Shown here piece after piece: positions 16,417-61,414 of a stretch of 64,000 nucleotides of DNA. This stretch comes from Branchipolynoe longqiensis (taxonomy: Eukaryota > Annelida > Polychaeta > Phyllodocida > Polynoidae). The DNA is taken from positions 63,204,917-63,268,916 of the forward strand of contig CM059198.1 in the NCBI GenBank assembly GCA_030323885.1, written 5' to 3'. The notes beneath the pieces were generated by a model that did not search any database, was not told the DNA's origin, and saw only the letters and a program-made list of their open reading frames with translations. Position numbers and translations under genes: made by a program. The stretch's first letter is position 1. Every line of letters starts with the position of its first letter.

Positions 16417-16885
16417 TGGTTGGTTGGTTGTTGGAGATTTACCTCCTTGCAACATGTAAGGTCATACCATTGATTGATGATTGATTGATTGGTTGCTTGC
16501 TTTACATCGTTTGGACAGCATAGGCCATATTCACGGCGAGAACTGTTTGTTTTTTATTCAGACCATCACTTTTACATGTAAAAGCATACAATCAATTATG
16601 TGTCAAAAGGTCATATCATGATGGGTACCGACTTTTGACAGTGTGCACTCATGGTGACTTTATAGTGCTACCCCACTAGCCCCTCAGCACCCTGACCTGA
16701 TCTCCCAGTCAGTCACATTATCCTGACACTGAGCCAACCGGTCCTTTCCCTATCCTATTAATGTCGAGCACCAAACTAGGAAGCGACAAGTATCAATTTT
16801 GTACGCATTGGTTTGACTTGACCGGGAATCAAACTCCCCATCTCCCACATAACACTGCGCTCTACCGATTTGGCCACCGCGTCCG
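16417..16885 (-). mobile_element. SINE-1 (A-type head) split by a LINE 3' end
   Basis: The tail complement (GGTTGGTTGGTTGTTGGAGA) runs to AAGGTCATA at 16,466. The copy resumes after the insertion at 16,607 and ends at the head complement CTACCGATTTGGCCACCGCG. Confidence 0.85.
16467..16606 (-). mobile_element. I-type LINE 3'-UTR fragment
   Basis: 140 bp of the LINE 3' end in minus orientation: the complement of the (AATC)n tail, GGCCATATTCACGGCGAGAA and TTTTACATGTAAAAGCATAC. The TSD AAGGTCATA is at 16,458-16,466 and 16,607-16,615. Confidence 0.85.
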
Positions 16886-17361
16886 GTCTGGCAACACTAT
16901 AAAGCTGTCATCGGTCCACACTGTCCCAAGCAAGTCGGTCCTTATCCTGATGACTCTAGTAGTGCCAGTGCGTAAAGACCCGACTAACATACTGGTGAAT
17001 TTGACATATAGTCAGCTCTGGTTAATCCGACACATTCTGTCGGATAGCAAATTGTCGGATTAACCAATTTAGACTATTTCATGGTCATTTGTGTTATTGT
17101 TATAAACATAAAAAAAGCCTATGTGTGACTGAATCAAACACCTAAGAACAAATCTACATTTATTACAGATAAACATACATATTGTAGTAGTCTGTGTAAA
17201 AGTACAACGTCTGAACACTTTGACTTCTCGATACTGAATGCTTTATTCACCGTCCAGGGCTCTGAACCACCGGCTAAACTTTCTATGACGTCATCTCATT
17301 AACATAGTCCTTTGTTCTCTCTCAATGCCTGGATCCCATTATGCATCTCATTAGCATATAT

Positions 17362-17859
17362 TACAGTCTGCACTGACCTCTCAGGCAAGTAACCACATAG
17401 ACATGTAGGCATGGATGGTGGTGATATCAGGGAGCCTAGGTGGTGTTATGGTTAGCACACTGGCCAGGAATGCAAAGATATGTGGGTTCGAGCCCTGCTC
17501 TAGGCACAATATTTCCCATTTTCATCACCCCCAGGACACTGGTTGCCGTGACCGTGATCCTATACAAGCTACACGCTGTATGGTTGTTGAACCTACAATG
17601 TGTATGTCTGTGTAAGTGCATTGCCTGTATGTATGTAATTGTAAGCATTAAAAGACTTACAATTCCAGGGGGATGAGTGTAGTAGTGTGCACTGACCTCT
17701 CAGGCAAGTAGCCACATATACAGGTAGGCATGGGTAGTGTGGTGATATCAGGGAGCCTAGGTGGTGTAATTGTTAGCACACTGGCCCGGAATGCAAAGAG
17801 ATGTAGGTTCGAGTCCTGCTCTAGGCACAATATTTCCCATTTTCATCACCCCCATGACA
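17362..17859 (+). mobile_element. TRIM-like LTR element with tRNA-Gln-like LTR (copy 1)
   Basis: Two direct repeats, 17,362-17,538 and 17,678-17,859, flank a 139-bp internal region. The 3' repeat starts TGTAGTAG and ends ATGACA. The internal region opens CTGGTTGCCGTGACC (TGG, primer-binding-site-like) and ends CCAGGGGGATGAG (polypurine-like) right before the 3' repeat. ATAT flanks both sides (17,358-17,361; 17,860-17,863). Total length 498 bp, identical to the copy at 30,982. No coding capacity. The alternative is a tandem SINE dimer, but TG/CA ends, equal lengths and 4-bp flanks favour LTR-type integration. Confidence 0.7.
17434..17505 (+). other. tRNA-Gln-like cloverleaf inside the 5' LTR
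   Basis: 72 nt. Acceptor GCCTAG pairs with CTAGGC. D arm GGTGTTATGGTTAGCAC differs by one base from the tRNA-Gln type. B box is GGGTTCGAGCCC. The anticodon arm is decayed, so it is a Pol III promoter-like relic rather than a working tRNA. Confidence 0.7.
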
Positions 17860-18160
17860 ATATCAATCATTCACAGTAACATTATTTGATATTTTAAAAC
17901 TTCGACAAACTGGACTGCACAGCGTGGTTCTGAGAATAGTGATGCAGAGTCTGGAACCACTCTAGTCGGGTACTTTCCAACTTAACTGGCAGGGTCTATT
18001 AGATGTGAGAATTGCCACTGAAAGAAGGTCTAAATCCGGGATATTAGTGCTAATTCATGTTTGATGGATTTCAAGTGTCGGATTAACCAGAGCTATAGGC
18101 ATGTTTGTTACAAAAAAGCATTGTCAGTGTCGGAAAGCGAGTGTCGGATTAACCAGAGTA

Positions 18161-30391: not shown

Positions 30392-30609
30392 TGTGGTGGT
30401 CTGCGCTGAACCACATAGAGAGGTGGGTGTGGGTAGGGTGATTGCATTAGAAAGCTTAGATAGCCTAATAGTCAGGAATGGCAAGAAGTATGGGTTCGAA
30501 ACCTGATCTAGGTGCAAAGTTTCCCATTTGCATCAAGGTCATGACACTGATGCCGTGACCAGAATCTTGTAGAAGCTACATGTTGCATCATTGGGGAACC
30601 TACCTTTTG
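30392..30609 (+). mobile_element. TRIM-like element, old 5' portion
   Basis: Diverged 5' LTR (30,392-30,546; TGTGGTGGTCTGCGCTG ... GGTCATGACA) followed by internal sequence CTGATGCCGTGACCAGAATC to GAACCTACC. It is broken by a minus-strand copy at 30,610. Confidence 0.6.
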
Positions 30610-30981
30610 TGTCATAGGGGTGATGAAAATGGGAAATATTGCACCTAGAGTGGGACTCGAACCCACATCTCTTTGAATTCCGGGCCAATGTGCTAACCTT
30701 TACACCATCGAGGCTCCCTGAGAAAGTGATATCACCACACTACCCACGCCTACCTGTCTATGTGGCTCCTTGCCTGAAAGGTCAGTGCAGACTACTACAC
30801 TCGTCCCCTTGGAATTGTAAGTCTTTTACTGCTTACAATTACATACATACAGGCAATGCACTTACATATACATATACATACACATACAGTAAAACCTCCC
30901 TAACCGATCACCTCCACAGATCGACCACTCCCCTATATCGATCGCTTTATTTGGTTCCCACCAATACCATTCTAACCATAT

Positions 30982-31479
30982 TGTCATGGGGGTGATGAAA
31001 ATGGGAAATATTGCGCCTAGAGCGGGACTCGAACCCACATCTCTTTGCATTCCGGGCCAGTGTGCTAACCATTACACCACCTAGGCTCCCTGATATCAAC
31101 ACACTACCCACGCCTACCTGACTATGTGGTTACTTGCCTGAGAGGTCAGTGCAGACCACTACACTCGTCCCCCTGGAATTGTAAGTCTTGTAATGCTTAC
31201 AATTACATACATACAGGCAATGCACTAACACATACATACACAGGGTAGGTTCAACAACCATACAGCGCAAAGCTTGTACAGGATCCTGGTCACGGCACCA
31301 TTGTCATGGGGGTGATGAAAATGGGAAATATTGCGCCTAGAGCGGGACTCGAACCCACATCTCTTTGCATTCCGGGCCAGTGTGCTAACCATTACACCAC
31401 CTAGGCTCCCTGATATCAACACACTACCCATGCCTACCTATGTGGTTACTTGCCTGAGAGGTCAGTGCAGCCTACTACA
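30982..31479 (-). mobile_element. TRIM-like element B, full length, minus
   Basis: Direct repeats 30,982-31,163 and 31,302-31,479 flank a 138-bp internal region. Read on the minus strand: TGTAGTAG start, ATGACA end, primer-site-like TGGTGCCGTGACCAGG, and CCAGGGGGACGAG before the 3' repeat. ATAT flanks at 30,978-30,981 and 31,480-31,483. Length 498 bp. The two LTRs are nearly identical, suggesting a recent insertion. Confidence 0.75.
31335..31406 (-). other. tRNA-Gln-like cloverleaf inside the LTR of copy B
   Basis: 72 nt on the minus strand: acceptor GCCTAG/CTAGGC, D arm GGTGTAATGGTTAGCAC (as in tRNA-Gln), T arm GTGGGTTCGAGTCCCGC. Anticodon arm not canonical. The same module is in the other LTR (about 31,015-31,086). 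Confidence 0.7.
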
Positions 31480-31900
31480 ATATTATAACTCCCTAAACCG
31501 ACCACCTCCCTAAATGGACCACTTAAAGTCGCTCCCAAAGTCGGTCGATTTAGAGAGGTTTTACTTTAGTACGCTCTACAACCATACAGTGCAGAGCTTG
31601 TACAGGATCATGGTCATGGCCACCAGTTGTAAAACATTCCGATTTACGGCATCGGGGGGAATGCAAATGTTGTATTACTGATCAGGTGTACGTGACCAAG
31701 CCATGTATGTATATATATGTAGGTGCTGGTGGTGCCTGAGTGGGATGTAAATAGACATAGTCGCGCTGGCAGGGCTGGGTGTAAGGGCACTCAGGGCCTT
31801 CCCCCCCCCCCCTCCCTCTCTGCTGGGTAGGATCACCCCACTCAGGGTCAAGGTTGGTGGTGGCCAGGGGGCCACACAGCTTGGTGGTGGTGGGCAGATC

Positions 31901-32631: not shown

Positions 32632-32932
32632 TAGCCATGGGGACCAGGAATGCTGGATCCTTATTGGTAGGGCAAAGAATGCTTGTTTCCCAATGGGGGA
32701 AAGGGGTGGGGTGATACTCTACAATGAACACCTGTAACCATATAAATAATAAACCAGAGGGCTTGACTTTCTCTCTTCCTTTACACTTGATACTCGTCCT
32801 TTCTCTTTATCTGTATTGATTTAACTATAGCCTGCCTACACAACCACATATTCGAGTCCTAGTCTTTACATAATTGGTGACCACGACGAGTGGTAAATCT
32901 ATTAGTCGAGTAGTGGATTCAACTTTACACAG

Positions 32933-33112
32933 TGTCGTAGAGGGTGATGCAAATGGGAAATATTGCACCTAGATTGGGACTCAAACCTACATCTCTTTGC
33001 ATTCTGGGCCAGTGTGCTAACCATTACACCACCTAAGCTCCCTGATATCAACACACTACCCACGCCTACCTGTGTATGCGGTTCCTTGCCTGAGAGGGCA
33101 GTGCAGACCAAT
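32933..33112 (-). mobile_element. Solo LTR of the TRIM-like family
   Basis: One 180-bp repeat unit with the tRNA-Gln-like module (GGTGTAATGGTTAGCAC complement at about 33,017-33,033) and no internal region on either side. Slightly diverged; no clear TSD. Confidence 0.7.
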
Positions 33113-33190
33113 ATATATGTAAGGGAATTACCCATCTGTCTTACCCTGTGTGCATCTGTAAGTGCATGTGTAATCGTGAGTGTGTCTAAT

Positions 33191-34858: not shown

Positions 34859-36054
34859 GCAGGACCGACCACTGTACATGGTATTTGTCGATTTCACTAA
34901 GGCATTTGATGCAGTCGGGAGGACCGGGCTATGGCAGCTACTGAGGAAGTACGGATGCCCAGAGAAGTTCACAACTATGATCGAGGCTCGACATACAGGA
35001 ATGATGGCGAACGTTAGTGCTGGAGGGGAAGTCTCGGAATCGTTTGGGGTTACCAATGGGGTCAAGCAAGGTTGTGTACTAGCCCCCACGCTCTTCTCCA
35101 TCTTCCTATCAGCAATGCTAGACGAGGCTTTCTGAGAAATGGGGGATGGCATCTATATACAGTCCAGACAGAGCGCTGACCTATTCAATGTCGCACACCT
35201 CAGAGCGAAGACCAAGACTACTCAGATACGGTGAGAGATACTATTCGCAGATGACAGTGCACTGGTTGCCCACTCTGCTGAAGAGACCCAGAAAATAGTG
35301 GACGCTTTCTCCGATGCATCAAAGAAGTTTGGCCTGAAAATTAACATCAAGAAGACGGAGGTGCTGTACCAACCCAACTCTACAAGAACCCGAGAGGAGG
35401 AGATCATGGTTGACGGAAACAAGCTGAACTCTGTTCCGGAATTCACCTATCTCGGAAGCACTATATCAAGTGATGGACGCATTGATGCTGAGATACAGAG
35501 GAGGATGGCCAAGGCTAGCGCATCTTTCGGCCGACTACGCCAGAGACTCTGGAACAACCACCATGTGTCCATTCGGGTCAAAGGTAAGATCTACCGCGCA
35601 ATCGTGCTATCCACCCTACTATACGGAGCCGAGGCCTGGACAGTGTACAGACAGCAGGTGAAAAAGCTGCATGCCTTCATGATGCGACATCTGCGTTCAA
35701 TCATGAGGCTAACCTGGAAGGACAAAGTGACAAATAAGGAAATACTCGAACGGATGGGGCTGCCCTCTATGGAAGATCTTCTGATCAAAAAGAATCTCCG
35801 GTGGACTGGACACCTCATGAGGATGTCATCAGACAGGCTACCAAAGCAGATCCTCTATTCTCAACTGTCTTCTGGCTACAGAAAGAGAGGGCACCCCCGT
35901 CTCCGGTTCAAAGATACCATCAAGAGAAACCTGAAGCTGAGAGACATTAAGACCGACTCATGGACGCAACTCTCACAGCAGAGAGCTAAATGGAGAGCGG
36001 CAGTCAAGTAATGAAAGCAGTCTTTGTCGCATCGCGACCGACAGCATGATGATG
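34859..36054 (+). mobile_element. 5'-truncated RTE-like non-LTR retrotransposon
   Basis: Flanked by a 14-bp TSD with one mismatch: AGCTCGCAGGCTGA (34,845-34,858) and AGCTCGCAGACTGA (36,055-36,068). It holds the C-terminal half of a reverse transcriptase ORF and a short 3' UTR ending ATGATGATG, a microsatellite-like tail typical of RTE-class elements. Length 1,196 bp. Confidence 0.85.
34860..36011 (+). pseudogene. Reverse transcriptase remnant, RTE-like
   Basis: One reading frame spans 34,860-36,011 but contains two TGA codons (35,133 and 35,232). Visible motifs in order: FVDFTKAFD (RT motif A), NGVKQGC (motif B), FADD (catalytic motif C, 35,244-35,255), KLNSVPEFTYLGS, then a C-terminal region with LLYGAEAWTVY, LRWTGHLMRM and a tryptophan-rich end. 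The endonuclease domain and N-terminal RT are missing. The order fits RTE-clade ORFs; RTE-X or a sister clade is possible. It cannot make an active enzyme. Confidence 0.85.
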
Positions 36055-59187: not shown

Positions 59188-59424
59188 GATAGAAAGCCCG
59201 AACCTACACTTTTACCGACCCAAGGGATTTTTAACCTCCCACACCACATAGACATGGTATGAGAGCAACCGGCCTTTGATGACGCTGTAAGTTATACACA
59301 GCGGTGGAAATCCAAATTGGCAGAGCTGGGGGCACGGGGAATCGAACCTCCGACCCTCAGATTAGGAGTCTGATGTAGAAAAAAGTCAGACACTCTAACC
59401 ACTCCGCCACAGAGAACGCCATGC
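59188..59424 (-). mobile_element. SINE-4, minus copy
   Basis: Same body and tRNA-Arg-like head as 9,944-10,250: complement of GGCGGAGTGGTTAGAGTGTC, CTCCTAA loop and GGTTCGATTCCCCGTGCCCC. The TTTTTTCTACATC insert at the anticodon arm is present here too. Confidence 0.8.
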
Positions 59425-60895: not shown

Positions 60896-61414
60896 TGTAG
60901 TTGGCTGCACTGACCTCTCAAGTAACCACATAGACAGGTAGGCGTGGGTAGTGTGATGGCATCAGGGAGCCTAGGTGGTGTAATGGTTAGCACACTGGCC
61001 TGGAATGCAAAGAGATGTGGGTTCTAGTCCCGCTCTAGGCGCAATATTTCCCATTTTCATCACCCCCATGACACTGGTAGCCGTGACCCTGATCCTGTAC
61101 AAGCTACGTGCTGTATGATTGTTGAACCTGTATGATTGTTGAACCTACCCTGTGTAAGTGCATTGCCTGTATGTATGTAATTGTAAGCATTAAATGACCA
61201 TTTAAAAGACTTACAATTCCAGGGGGACGAGTGTAGTAGGCTGCACTGACCTCTCAGGCAAGTAACCACATAGACAGGTAGGCGTGGGTAGTGTGTTGAT
61301 ATCAGGGAGCCTAGGTGGTGTAATGGTTAGCACACTGGCCCGGAATGCAAAGAGATGTGGGTTCGAAGCCCGCTCTAGGCGCAATATTTCCCATTTTCAT
61401 CACCCCCCATGACA
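60896..61414 (+). mobile_element. TRIM-like LTR element with tRNA-Gln-like LTR (copy 3)
   Basis: LTRs 60,896-61,073 and 61,232-61,414. The internal region opens CTGGTAGCCGTGACC and ends CCAGGGGGACGAG before TGTAGTAGG. It is slightly longer than the 498-bp copies because of a small internal duplication (GTATGATTGTTGAACCT twice). Flanks ATAT / ACAT, one mismatch. tRNA-Gln-like module in both LTRs (GGTGTAATGGTTAGCAC). Confidence 0.72.

What the first reader, a model, noticed from the sequence alone, without database searches (positions are those of the whole stretch)
17362..17859. TRIM-like LTR element with a tRNA-Gln-like Pol III promoter inside its LTR
Direct repeats of about 180 bp begin TG and end CA. 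A TGG-starting 15-mer resembling a primer-binding site follows the first repeat, and a purine run (CCAGGGGGATGAG) precedes the second. Flanks are ATAT on both sides. Each repeat holds a 72-nt cloverleaf-like module whose D arm closely follows tRNA-Gln. Plant Cassandra TRIMs carry 5S rRNA promoter sequence in their LTRs; a tRNA-carrying animal counterpart would be notable. I do not know of a described one, and cannot check.
Basis: partly seen in the sequence, partly recalled or inferred. Interest (0 to 1): 0.9.

Follow-up and report, generated by a model that had tools for sequence, protein, structure and literature searches.

The report
tRNA-carrying mini LTR retrotransposon (Helenus type)
This is a genuine half-kilobase jumping element with a tRNA-like promoter in its repeated ends, a kind first described in 2024, and the surrounding genome keeps rare fossils that point to the host tRNA that started its copying and to a larger element it probably copies alongside.

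Summary
Window 17362-17859 is LTR (177 bp) - internal (139) - LTR (182) with ATAT on both sides, a PBS, a PPT and a tRNA-like module in each LTR. Three related loci lie in the window; one holds three LTRs through nesting, not tandem repetition. In the genome, 36 of 49 distinct complete sampled loci carry exact 4-bp TSDs (about 3 expected by random pairing), centred on a palindromic target. The PBS complements the 3' end of the host's tRNA-His (18 of 18 nt in window locus B). It is not a SINE.

The kind is already published: Helenus (Kojima 2024, PMC10886601), TRIMs with a tRNA-derived sequence in their LTRs and 4-bp TSDs in animals. So this is a new member of a known kind.

New here: copies of the tRNA-His primer fused to this family's LTR (L097, L099), and a larger retrotransposon family with 333-340-bp LTRs sharing the LTR start, tRNA-His PBS and 4-bp TSDs. 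One insertion (L031) joins that LTR, a whole tRNA-His copy and the TRIM between ATAG repeats, making it the likely helper.

The parts
17358..17361 (.). left target-site duplication ATAT of locus A
   Evidence: 4-bp TSDs in 36 of 49 other genome loci
17362..17538 (+). 5' LTR of locus A (start diverged, ends CAGGACA)
17434..17506 (+). tRNA-like module in 5' LTR (Pol III box A and box B)
   Evidence: Rfam RF00005 35.1 bits; box conservation
17518..17523 (+). ATTTTC: the T4 run after the module, candidate Pol III stop (R-region end in the model)
   Evidence: T4 in the tail of 137 of 142 LTR sequences
17539..17677 (+). 139-bp internal region
17540..17558 (+). primer-binding site, TGGT(T)GCCGTGACC..., complement of host tRNA-His 3' end with one extra T
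17665..17677 (+). polypurine tract CCAGGGGGATGAG
   Evidence: CCAGGGGGACGAG in at least 48 of 59 sampled internals
17678..17859 (+). 3' LTR of locus A, TGTAGTAG...CATGACA
17755..17827 (+). tRNA-like module in 3' LTR
17860..17863 (.). right target-site duplication ATAT
30982..31479 (-). locus B, young two-LTR copy (LTRs 31302-31479 and 30982-31163, internal 31164-31301), TSD ATAT; PBS 18 of 18 to host tRNA-His
30888..31565 (-). MITE-like element (arms about 31480-31565 and 30888-30981) into which the young copy of locus B is inserted; uninterrupted relatives in L039 and L016
30610..31627 (-). older copy of the family broken by the MITE-like element: internal pieces about 31566-31627 and 30800-30887, 3' LTR 30610-30799
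30409..30603 (+). older, 72-75% identical relative (LTR part plus PBS region), opposite strand
32930..33116 (-). locus C, single LTR
60896..61414 (+). locus D, two-LTR copy (LTRs 60896-61073 and 61232-61414); flanks ATAT/ACAT, TSD not exact

Best explanation
It is a non-autonomous miniature LTR retrotransposon (TRIM) of the Helenus type. A tRNA-derived internal promoter in each LTR would let RNA polymerase III start near the tRNA-like module of the 5' LTR and stop at the T4 run after the module of the 3' LTR, giving an RNA with a repeated end (R) of about 90 nt (inferred). Host tRNA-His anneals to the PBS and primes minus-strand DNA (complementarity shown; use shown indirectly by LTR-tRNA fusions). 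The PPT primes the plus strand (inferred). An integrase supplied in trans joins the TGT..ACA ends to AT-rich palindromic targets with a 4-bp duplication (TSDs and target motif shown; enzyme inferred). The likely helper, or at least co-traveller, is a larger retrotransposon family with 333-340-bp LTRs that start TGTAGTAGTCTG (one of the TRIM's own start variants), end CATTACA, and have a tRNA-His PBS and 4-bp TSDs (shown in the copies read); a chimeric insertion of the two suggests that their cDNAs met during reverse transcription (inferred from L031 and L090).
For: 4-bp TSDs in 36 of 49 distinct complete loci; shuffled pairing gives mean 3.1 and at most 9 of 49 in 2000 trials; TSD centre TA in 22 of 36 against 11% in the flanks; flanking bases follow ATR-NTAN-YAT. 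Relatives of the MITE-like element without the insert have one AATAT where locus B has ATAT-element-ATAT. LTR-LTR identity averages 98.4% in 29 two-LTR loci with TSDs, 5 of 29 identical. Of 58 internals, 5 match host tRNA-His 18 of 18 and 49 match 16-18 of 18 once one extra T is allowed. Mean minor-allele frequency over 142 LTR sequences is 0.9% in the box A stretch and 4.0% in the upstream part; T4 occurs in 137 of 142 tails, elsewhere in 2 of 142 LTRs and in 2 of 64 internals. TRIM LTR fused to 36 nt (L097) and to a 69-of-75 copy (L099) of tRNA-His. Helper LTR + T + 75-nt tRNA-His + TRIM with ATAG on both sides in L031. Of 12 helper LTRs fetched, 6 have exact 4-bp TSDs and 4 are followed by a tRNA-His-type PBS.
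Against: No transcription data; the T4 in the 5' LTR would have to be read through for a full template. Most PBSs carry one extra T against tRNA-His (49 of 58). Five of the 36 TSDs are TATA in AT runs, where a match is weak evidence. Apart from the start bases (other TRIM variants differ at one or two of the 12) and the end CAT(G/T)ACA, the helper LTR has no similarity above chance to the TRIM LTR. The one helper copy read internally has an aspartyl-protease-like stretch only (E 4e-4, below the curated cut-off) and no RT or integrase match; stretches from two other copies had no plus-strand frame of 100 aa. Helper PBSs match tRNA-His for only 11-15 nt in the three measured. Random pairing gives a 4-bp match about 6% of the time, so ATAG around L031 alone is modest evidence; L090 has no matching TSD.
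Confidence: 0.87

Rival explanations
1. Two tandem copies of a tRNA-derived SINE (or a tandem repeat), moved by LINE machinery.
For: A tRNA-like promoter; 9 of 49 loci are arrays of 3-5 LTR units (L002, L005, L012, L017, L019, L046, L050, L062, L066).
Against: Constant 4-bp TSDs with a palindromic motif, PBS and PPT at the right places, LTR ends TGT..ACA; 34 of 49 loci have exactly two LTRs and the three-LTR window locus is a nested insertion. In the less biased LTR-only sample 12 of 22 have two LTRs, 5 one, 5 three or more, one of these being the nested window locus.
Confidence: 0.02
2. A TRIM transcribed by Pol II, in which the tRNA-like module is a passenger without promoter function.
For: Promoter activity was not tested; the two helper LTRs printed carry a CAATAAA stretch, so the helper is probably Pol II-driven.
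Against: Of the LTR parts compared, the box A stretch varies least, and T4 runs are nearly absent outside the tail; [quoted passage not shown]
Confidence: 0.12
3. The 333-340-bp-LTR family is only a neighbour with the same PBS type; L031 is a later joining of two insertions, and another family mobilises the TRIM.
For: 701 exact 18-nt tRNA-His PBS-like sites (followed by a base other than C) exist; of 20 that I chose from the 100 listed, 4 were TRIM-type, 11 another repeat and 5 neither, none with the helper's LTR end. No RT seen in the helper.
Against: Shared LTR start, one-base spacer and 4-bp TSDs, fused primer tRNA in both, ATAG on both sides of the L031 chimera, and a second recombinant, L090.
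Confidence: 0.25

Closest known systems
Helenus (TRIMp3), Kojima 2024, PMC10886601
   Same: Short TRIM, tRNA-derived sequence in each LTR, PBS and PPT, 4-bp TSDs in animals, tRNA-His among the bivalve and vertebrate primers, conserved boxes A and B, tandem arrays reported for one fish family.
   Different: Sequence could not be compared with the published consensuses (supplement not open here). Not found in the main text (figures not held): a target motif, primer-tRNA fossils, or chimeras with a helper. Species here unnamed.
Cassandra (plant TRIM with 5S rRNA in the LTR), PMC7215508, abstract and outline seen
   Same: Pol III promoter inside the LTR, TRIM layout, tandem arrays sharing LTRs.
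   Different: tRNA-like, not 5S: all 8 Rfam matches in the window are tRNA.
biv-TRIM (bivalves), PMC6934838, part 1 of 5 of the text read
   Same: Animal TRIM with terminal direct repeats, solo and tandem forms.
   Different: Repeats 202-218 bp, internal 77-80 bp, PPT mostly GGGGAGA, no unambiguous PBS; here 182, 139, GGGGGACGAG, clear tRNA-His PBS.
tRNA-derived SINE (SINE2)
   Same: tRNA-like promoter.
   Different: No LTRs, PBS, PPT or constant 4-bp TSD in SINEs (recalled).

Membership tests
Helenus | TRIM: two LTRs, about 1 kb or less, no coding capacity | tested here: met
   503 bp in most two-LTR copies, LTR 182, internal mostly 139
Helenus | tRNA-derived sequence in each LTR | tested here: met
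   Rfam RF00005 in both LTRs of loci A and D and in three of B; not above the gathering score in the single LTR of C
Helenus | PBS after the 5' LTR and PPT before the 3' LTR | tested here: met
Helenus | 4-bp TSD (animal members) | tested here: met
   36 of 49 loci
Helenus | box A and box B conserved | tested here: met
   (GGTTCGAGTCC in 124 of 142 LTR sequences)
Helenus | mobilised by Gypsy-superfamily element (animals) | tested here: inconclusive
   candidate helper with tRNA-His PBS and 4-bp TSD; only a weak aspartyl-protease match
Helenus | Pol III transcription | not testable with these tools
   no RNA data
Helenus | sequence relation to published consensuses | not testable with these tools
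Cassandra | 5S rRNA sequence in LTR | tested here: not met
   no 5S match at gathering score in the window
SINE2 | no LTRs, TPRT-type variable TSD, 3' tail | tested here: not met
biv-TRIM | 202-218 bp repeats, 77-80 bp internal, PPT GGGGAGA | tested here: not met

The most novel reading that the evidence does not exclude
A Pol III-driven TRIM and a Pol II-driven helper with unrelated LTR bodies share only the LTR termini, PBS/primer and TSD size, and their cDNAs meet in one reverse-transcription complex; insertions in which the whole primer tRNA-His has been copied, alone or bridging helper and TRIM, are fossils of that encounter. Mosaic arrays inside one TSD (L066, L002) would then be later cDNA recombination into resident copies.
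Probability: 0.55. Interest if true: 0.7.

Novelty: new member of a known kind. Interest (0 to 1): 0.5.

Why it matters
Kojima 2024 states that it is not known how a TRIM's dependence on its helper is maintained and that no helper is indicated for Cassandra. Here an abundant, young family (10648 first-look candidates, 40 scored), a candidate helper family and LTR-tRNA fusions sit in one genome, so helper identity, primer use and Pol III start can be tested directly. Such LTRs also inflate tRNA gene predictions: the six tRNA-Ser genes that ARAGORN calls in this window are all LTRs of this family.

Tried and rejected
SINE dimer: rejected by TSDs and PBS/PPT. Tandem-array reading of the three-LTR locus B: rejected, nested insertion. 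Functional tRNA: none of four folds is a cloverleaf. tRNA-Gln origin: inconclusive (six human tRNAs and one host tRNA compared; the first run failed on a script error). Viral and prokaryote collections: no exact match to a 28-mer of the module. First PBS-extension pattern had a two-base spacer and gave 0; with a one-base spacer 12 hits, control 0. That pattern presupposes the LTR-tRNA junction, so its 12 hits are not an unbiased sample; the less biased hint is that 3 of 6 fetched (of 16) tRNA-His matches abut a repeat element at an encoded CCA. Extensions of 22-27 nt (L090, L092, L096) could be PBS variants and are not counted as fossils. Integrase-like motif read by eye in L095: Pfam finds nothing; one search gave 4 unnamed hits. 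L102, fetched as a possible helper interior, holds a run of N and frames on the other strand, and was dropped. Organism: the cytochrome oxidase search did not complete; the LINE fragment gave one named fish hit at 79% among 120 listed of 1238, which does not identify the host. Papers: nine searches. Only one search was aimed at genomic fusions of LTR and primer tRNA; it listed 12 of 22 papers, none with such a title, and the library is partial, so I do not claim that such fusions are unreported.

Full report
Observation. Reading the window and self-comparison confirm a direct repeat of about 180 bp with a 139-bp spacer at 17362-17859, with TGG after the first repeat, a purine run before the second and ATAT on both sides; the TG..CA ends are intact in the second repeat, and the first has lost its start. 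Rfam finds tRNA in both repeats (35.1 and 46.0 bits, gathering score 29). The window holds three further loci: B (minus strand, three LTRs), C (one LTR) and D (two LTRs). Rfam reaches its gathering score in B and D but not in C.

The three-LTR locus is nested, not tandem. In B an older copy is split by a MITE-like element whose ends are AGTAAAACCTC and its complement; a younger copy (30982-31479) is inserted in that element between two ATAT. Related elements without the insert in L039 and L016 read straight through a single AATAT.

Genome sample. The host assembly has 1.85 Gb in 1914 contigs. The whole element gave 46 matches, the tool scoring 40 of 10648 candidates; the LTR alone gave 41, scoring 40 of 521. 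I examined 60 fetched loci, 30 from each query. Six were repeats of an already counted locus and five were truncated, which includes window locus A itself because its LTR start has diverged; 49 remained. Of these 34 have two LTRs, 6 three, 5 one, 3 four and 1 five (window B counts here as three). Exact 4-bp TSDs flank 36 of 49; random pairing gives a mean of 3.1 and a maximum of 9 in 2000 shuffles. Five of the 36 are TATA in AT runs and weak on their own. The TSD centre is TA in 22 of 36 (11% in flanks), and the neighbours follow ATR-NTAN-YAT. In the LTR-only set of 22 complete loci, 12 have two LTRs, 5 one and 5 three or more. Of the five single-LTR loci, L048 and L051 look solo (L051 with exact AAAG, L048 CAAG/CAAA), L044 follows a PPT and L045 and L056 precede a PBS. 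Within 29 two-LTR elements with TSDs, LTRs are 95.6-100% identical, mean 98.4%. Ten arrays were compared, one of them truncated (L065): L050 and L062 have identical internals; L066, L065, L002 and L017 mix units as different as separate elements (9-13 substitutions; separate elements average 4.8%, about 7); L005, L012, L019 and L046 lie between. L066 and L002 have one TSD around the whole array.

Primer. Six of 16 tRNA-His-like matches in the host genome were fetched. The complement of the tRNA-His 3' end with CCA is TGGTGCCGTGACCAGGAT; window locus B has it 18 of 18. Over 58 internals (one of 59 left out for length): 5 exact, 49 at 16-18 of 18 with one extra T, 2 at 16-17 ungapped, 2 poor.

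Promoter. Over 142 LTR sequences (the reference included, and LTRs of window loci A and B present twice) the mean minor-allele frequency is 0.9% around box A, 1.9% around box B, 2.1% over the tRNA-like module, 4.0% upstream and 2.4% in the tail. T4 lies in the tail of 137 of 142, elsewhere in the LTR in 2 of 142, and in 2 of 64 internals. In the model R runs from the module to T4, about 90 nt; the 5' T4 must then be read through. Pol III use is inference.

Primer fossils. Three of the six tRNA-His matches carry an encoded CCA and abut a repeat element: the helper LTR in L031 and L033, an unidentified repeat in L032. A pattern of CA, one base and 22 nt of tRNA-His complement gave 12 places, control 0. 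All 12 were read. Nine extend at least 33 nt into the tRNA, some with mismatches; of these, two follow a TRIM LTR (L097, 36 nt; L099, 69 of 75 identical, sitting in a MITE-like element), six follow the helper LTR (L031, L093, L094, L095, L098, L100) and one follows neither (L101). Three extend 22-27 nt (L090, L092, L096) and may be PBS variants. Neither L097 nor the next 0.9 kb shows a 3' LTR, and no clear TSD was found for L097 or L099. That reverse transcriptases normally stop after 18 nt at a modified tRNA base is recalled knowledge.

Helper candidate. L031 and L033 carry a 335- and a 340-bp LTR that starts TGTAGTAGTCTG, one of the TRIM's start variants (others differ at one or two of the 12 bases), and ends CATTACA. 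L031 reads ATAG - helper LTR - T - 75-nt tRNA-His copy (74 of 75) - last bases of a TRIM LTR - TRIM internal - TRIM LTR - ATAG. L033 has helper LTR, tRNA-His copy (73 of 75), CATTACA and a 5-bp match GGTGG. L090 has a TRIM-type 5' LTR, about 510 nt of other sequence, a PPT and a helper-type 3' LTR (78% identical) but no matching TSD. The helper LTR is abundant and young: the 40 scored of 2358 candidates are 99-100% identical to the query. Of 12 fetched, six are single LTRs with exact 4-bp TSDs, four are followed by T and TGGTGCCGTGA (one of these runs into N), and two follow a PPT-like CTCTAAGGGGGGCAG. Exact runs to tRNA-His are 11, 15 and 11 nt in the three tested. A stretch of one copy (L116) has four plus-strand frames of 100 aa or more; one of them has a weak aspartyl-protease match (E 4e-4, 21.4 bits against a cut-off of 28.2), and a partial helper LTR follows. 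Stretches from two other copies had no plus-strand frame of 100 aa. RT and integrase were therefore not seen.

Known kind. Kojima 2024 (PMC10886601; all six parts of the main text read, supplement and figures not) defines Helenus as TRIMs with tRNA-like LTRs, 4-bp TSDs in animals, bivalve primers including tRNA-His, and Gypsy-type helpers inferred from PBS similarity. The anatomical features tested here are met. Table 1 there lists six animal phyla; the species here is unnamed, so whether the host group is new cannot be told. What is added is the target motif, the primer fossils, the helper candidate and the chimeras.

Noticed in passing
L032 710-2297: A palindrome of about 1.6 kb with a complete tRNA-His copy at its centre, arms 96% alike, of another element whose copies read GGTTAAAC-TGGTGCCGTGACCAGGAT; looks like a self-primed fold-back from the tRNA acceptor stem.
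   Followed up: partly
L068, L069, L071-L073, L075, L077, L079, L080, L083, L084, L086, L088: A different repeat carries an exact 18-nt complement of tRNA-His after GGTTAAAC and, where read on, before (T)AGTAAGGAGTG or a near variant; 11 of the 20 sampled 18-nt sites, plus L068 and L069. What it is remains open.
   Followed up: partly
L069 1379-1834 and 2116-3999: A NADAR-domain frame beside an endonuclease/reverse-transcriptase frame of a LINE (Pfam).
   Followed up: no
L038, L058, L061, L064: Four TRIM copies share the same flanks on different contigs, as if carried in a duplicated or mobile host segment (counted once).
   Followed up: no
window 17638-17663 and homologous places: The internal region has an inverted repeat ATTGTAAG...CTTACAAT just before the PPT, also present in loci B and D (by eye).
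   Followed up: no
window 16815-16885 (-): A further tRNA-like stretch, probably a SINE, about 0.5 kb from the element (by eye).
   Followed up: no
window 59327-59408 (-): A marginal Rfam tRNA match (29.3 bits, gathering 29) outside the loci described.
   Followed up: no
window 35235-36011: LINE reverse-transcriptase fragment (PF00078).
   Followed up: partly
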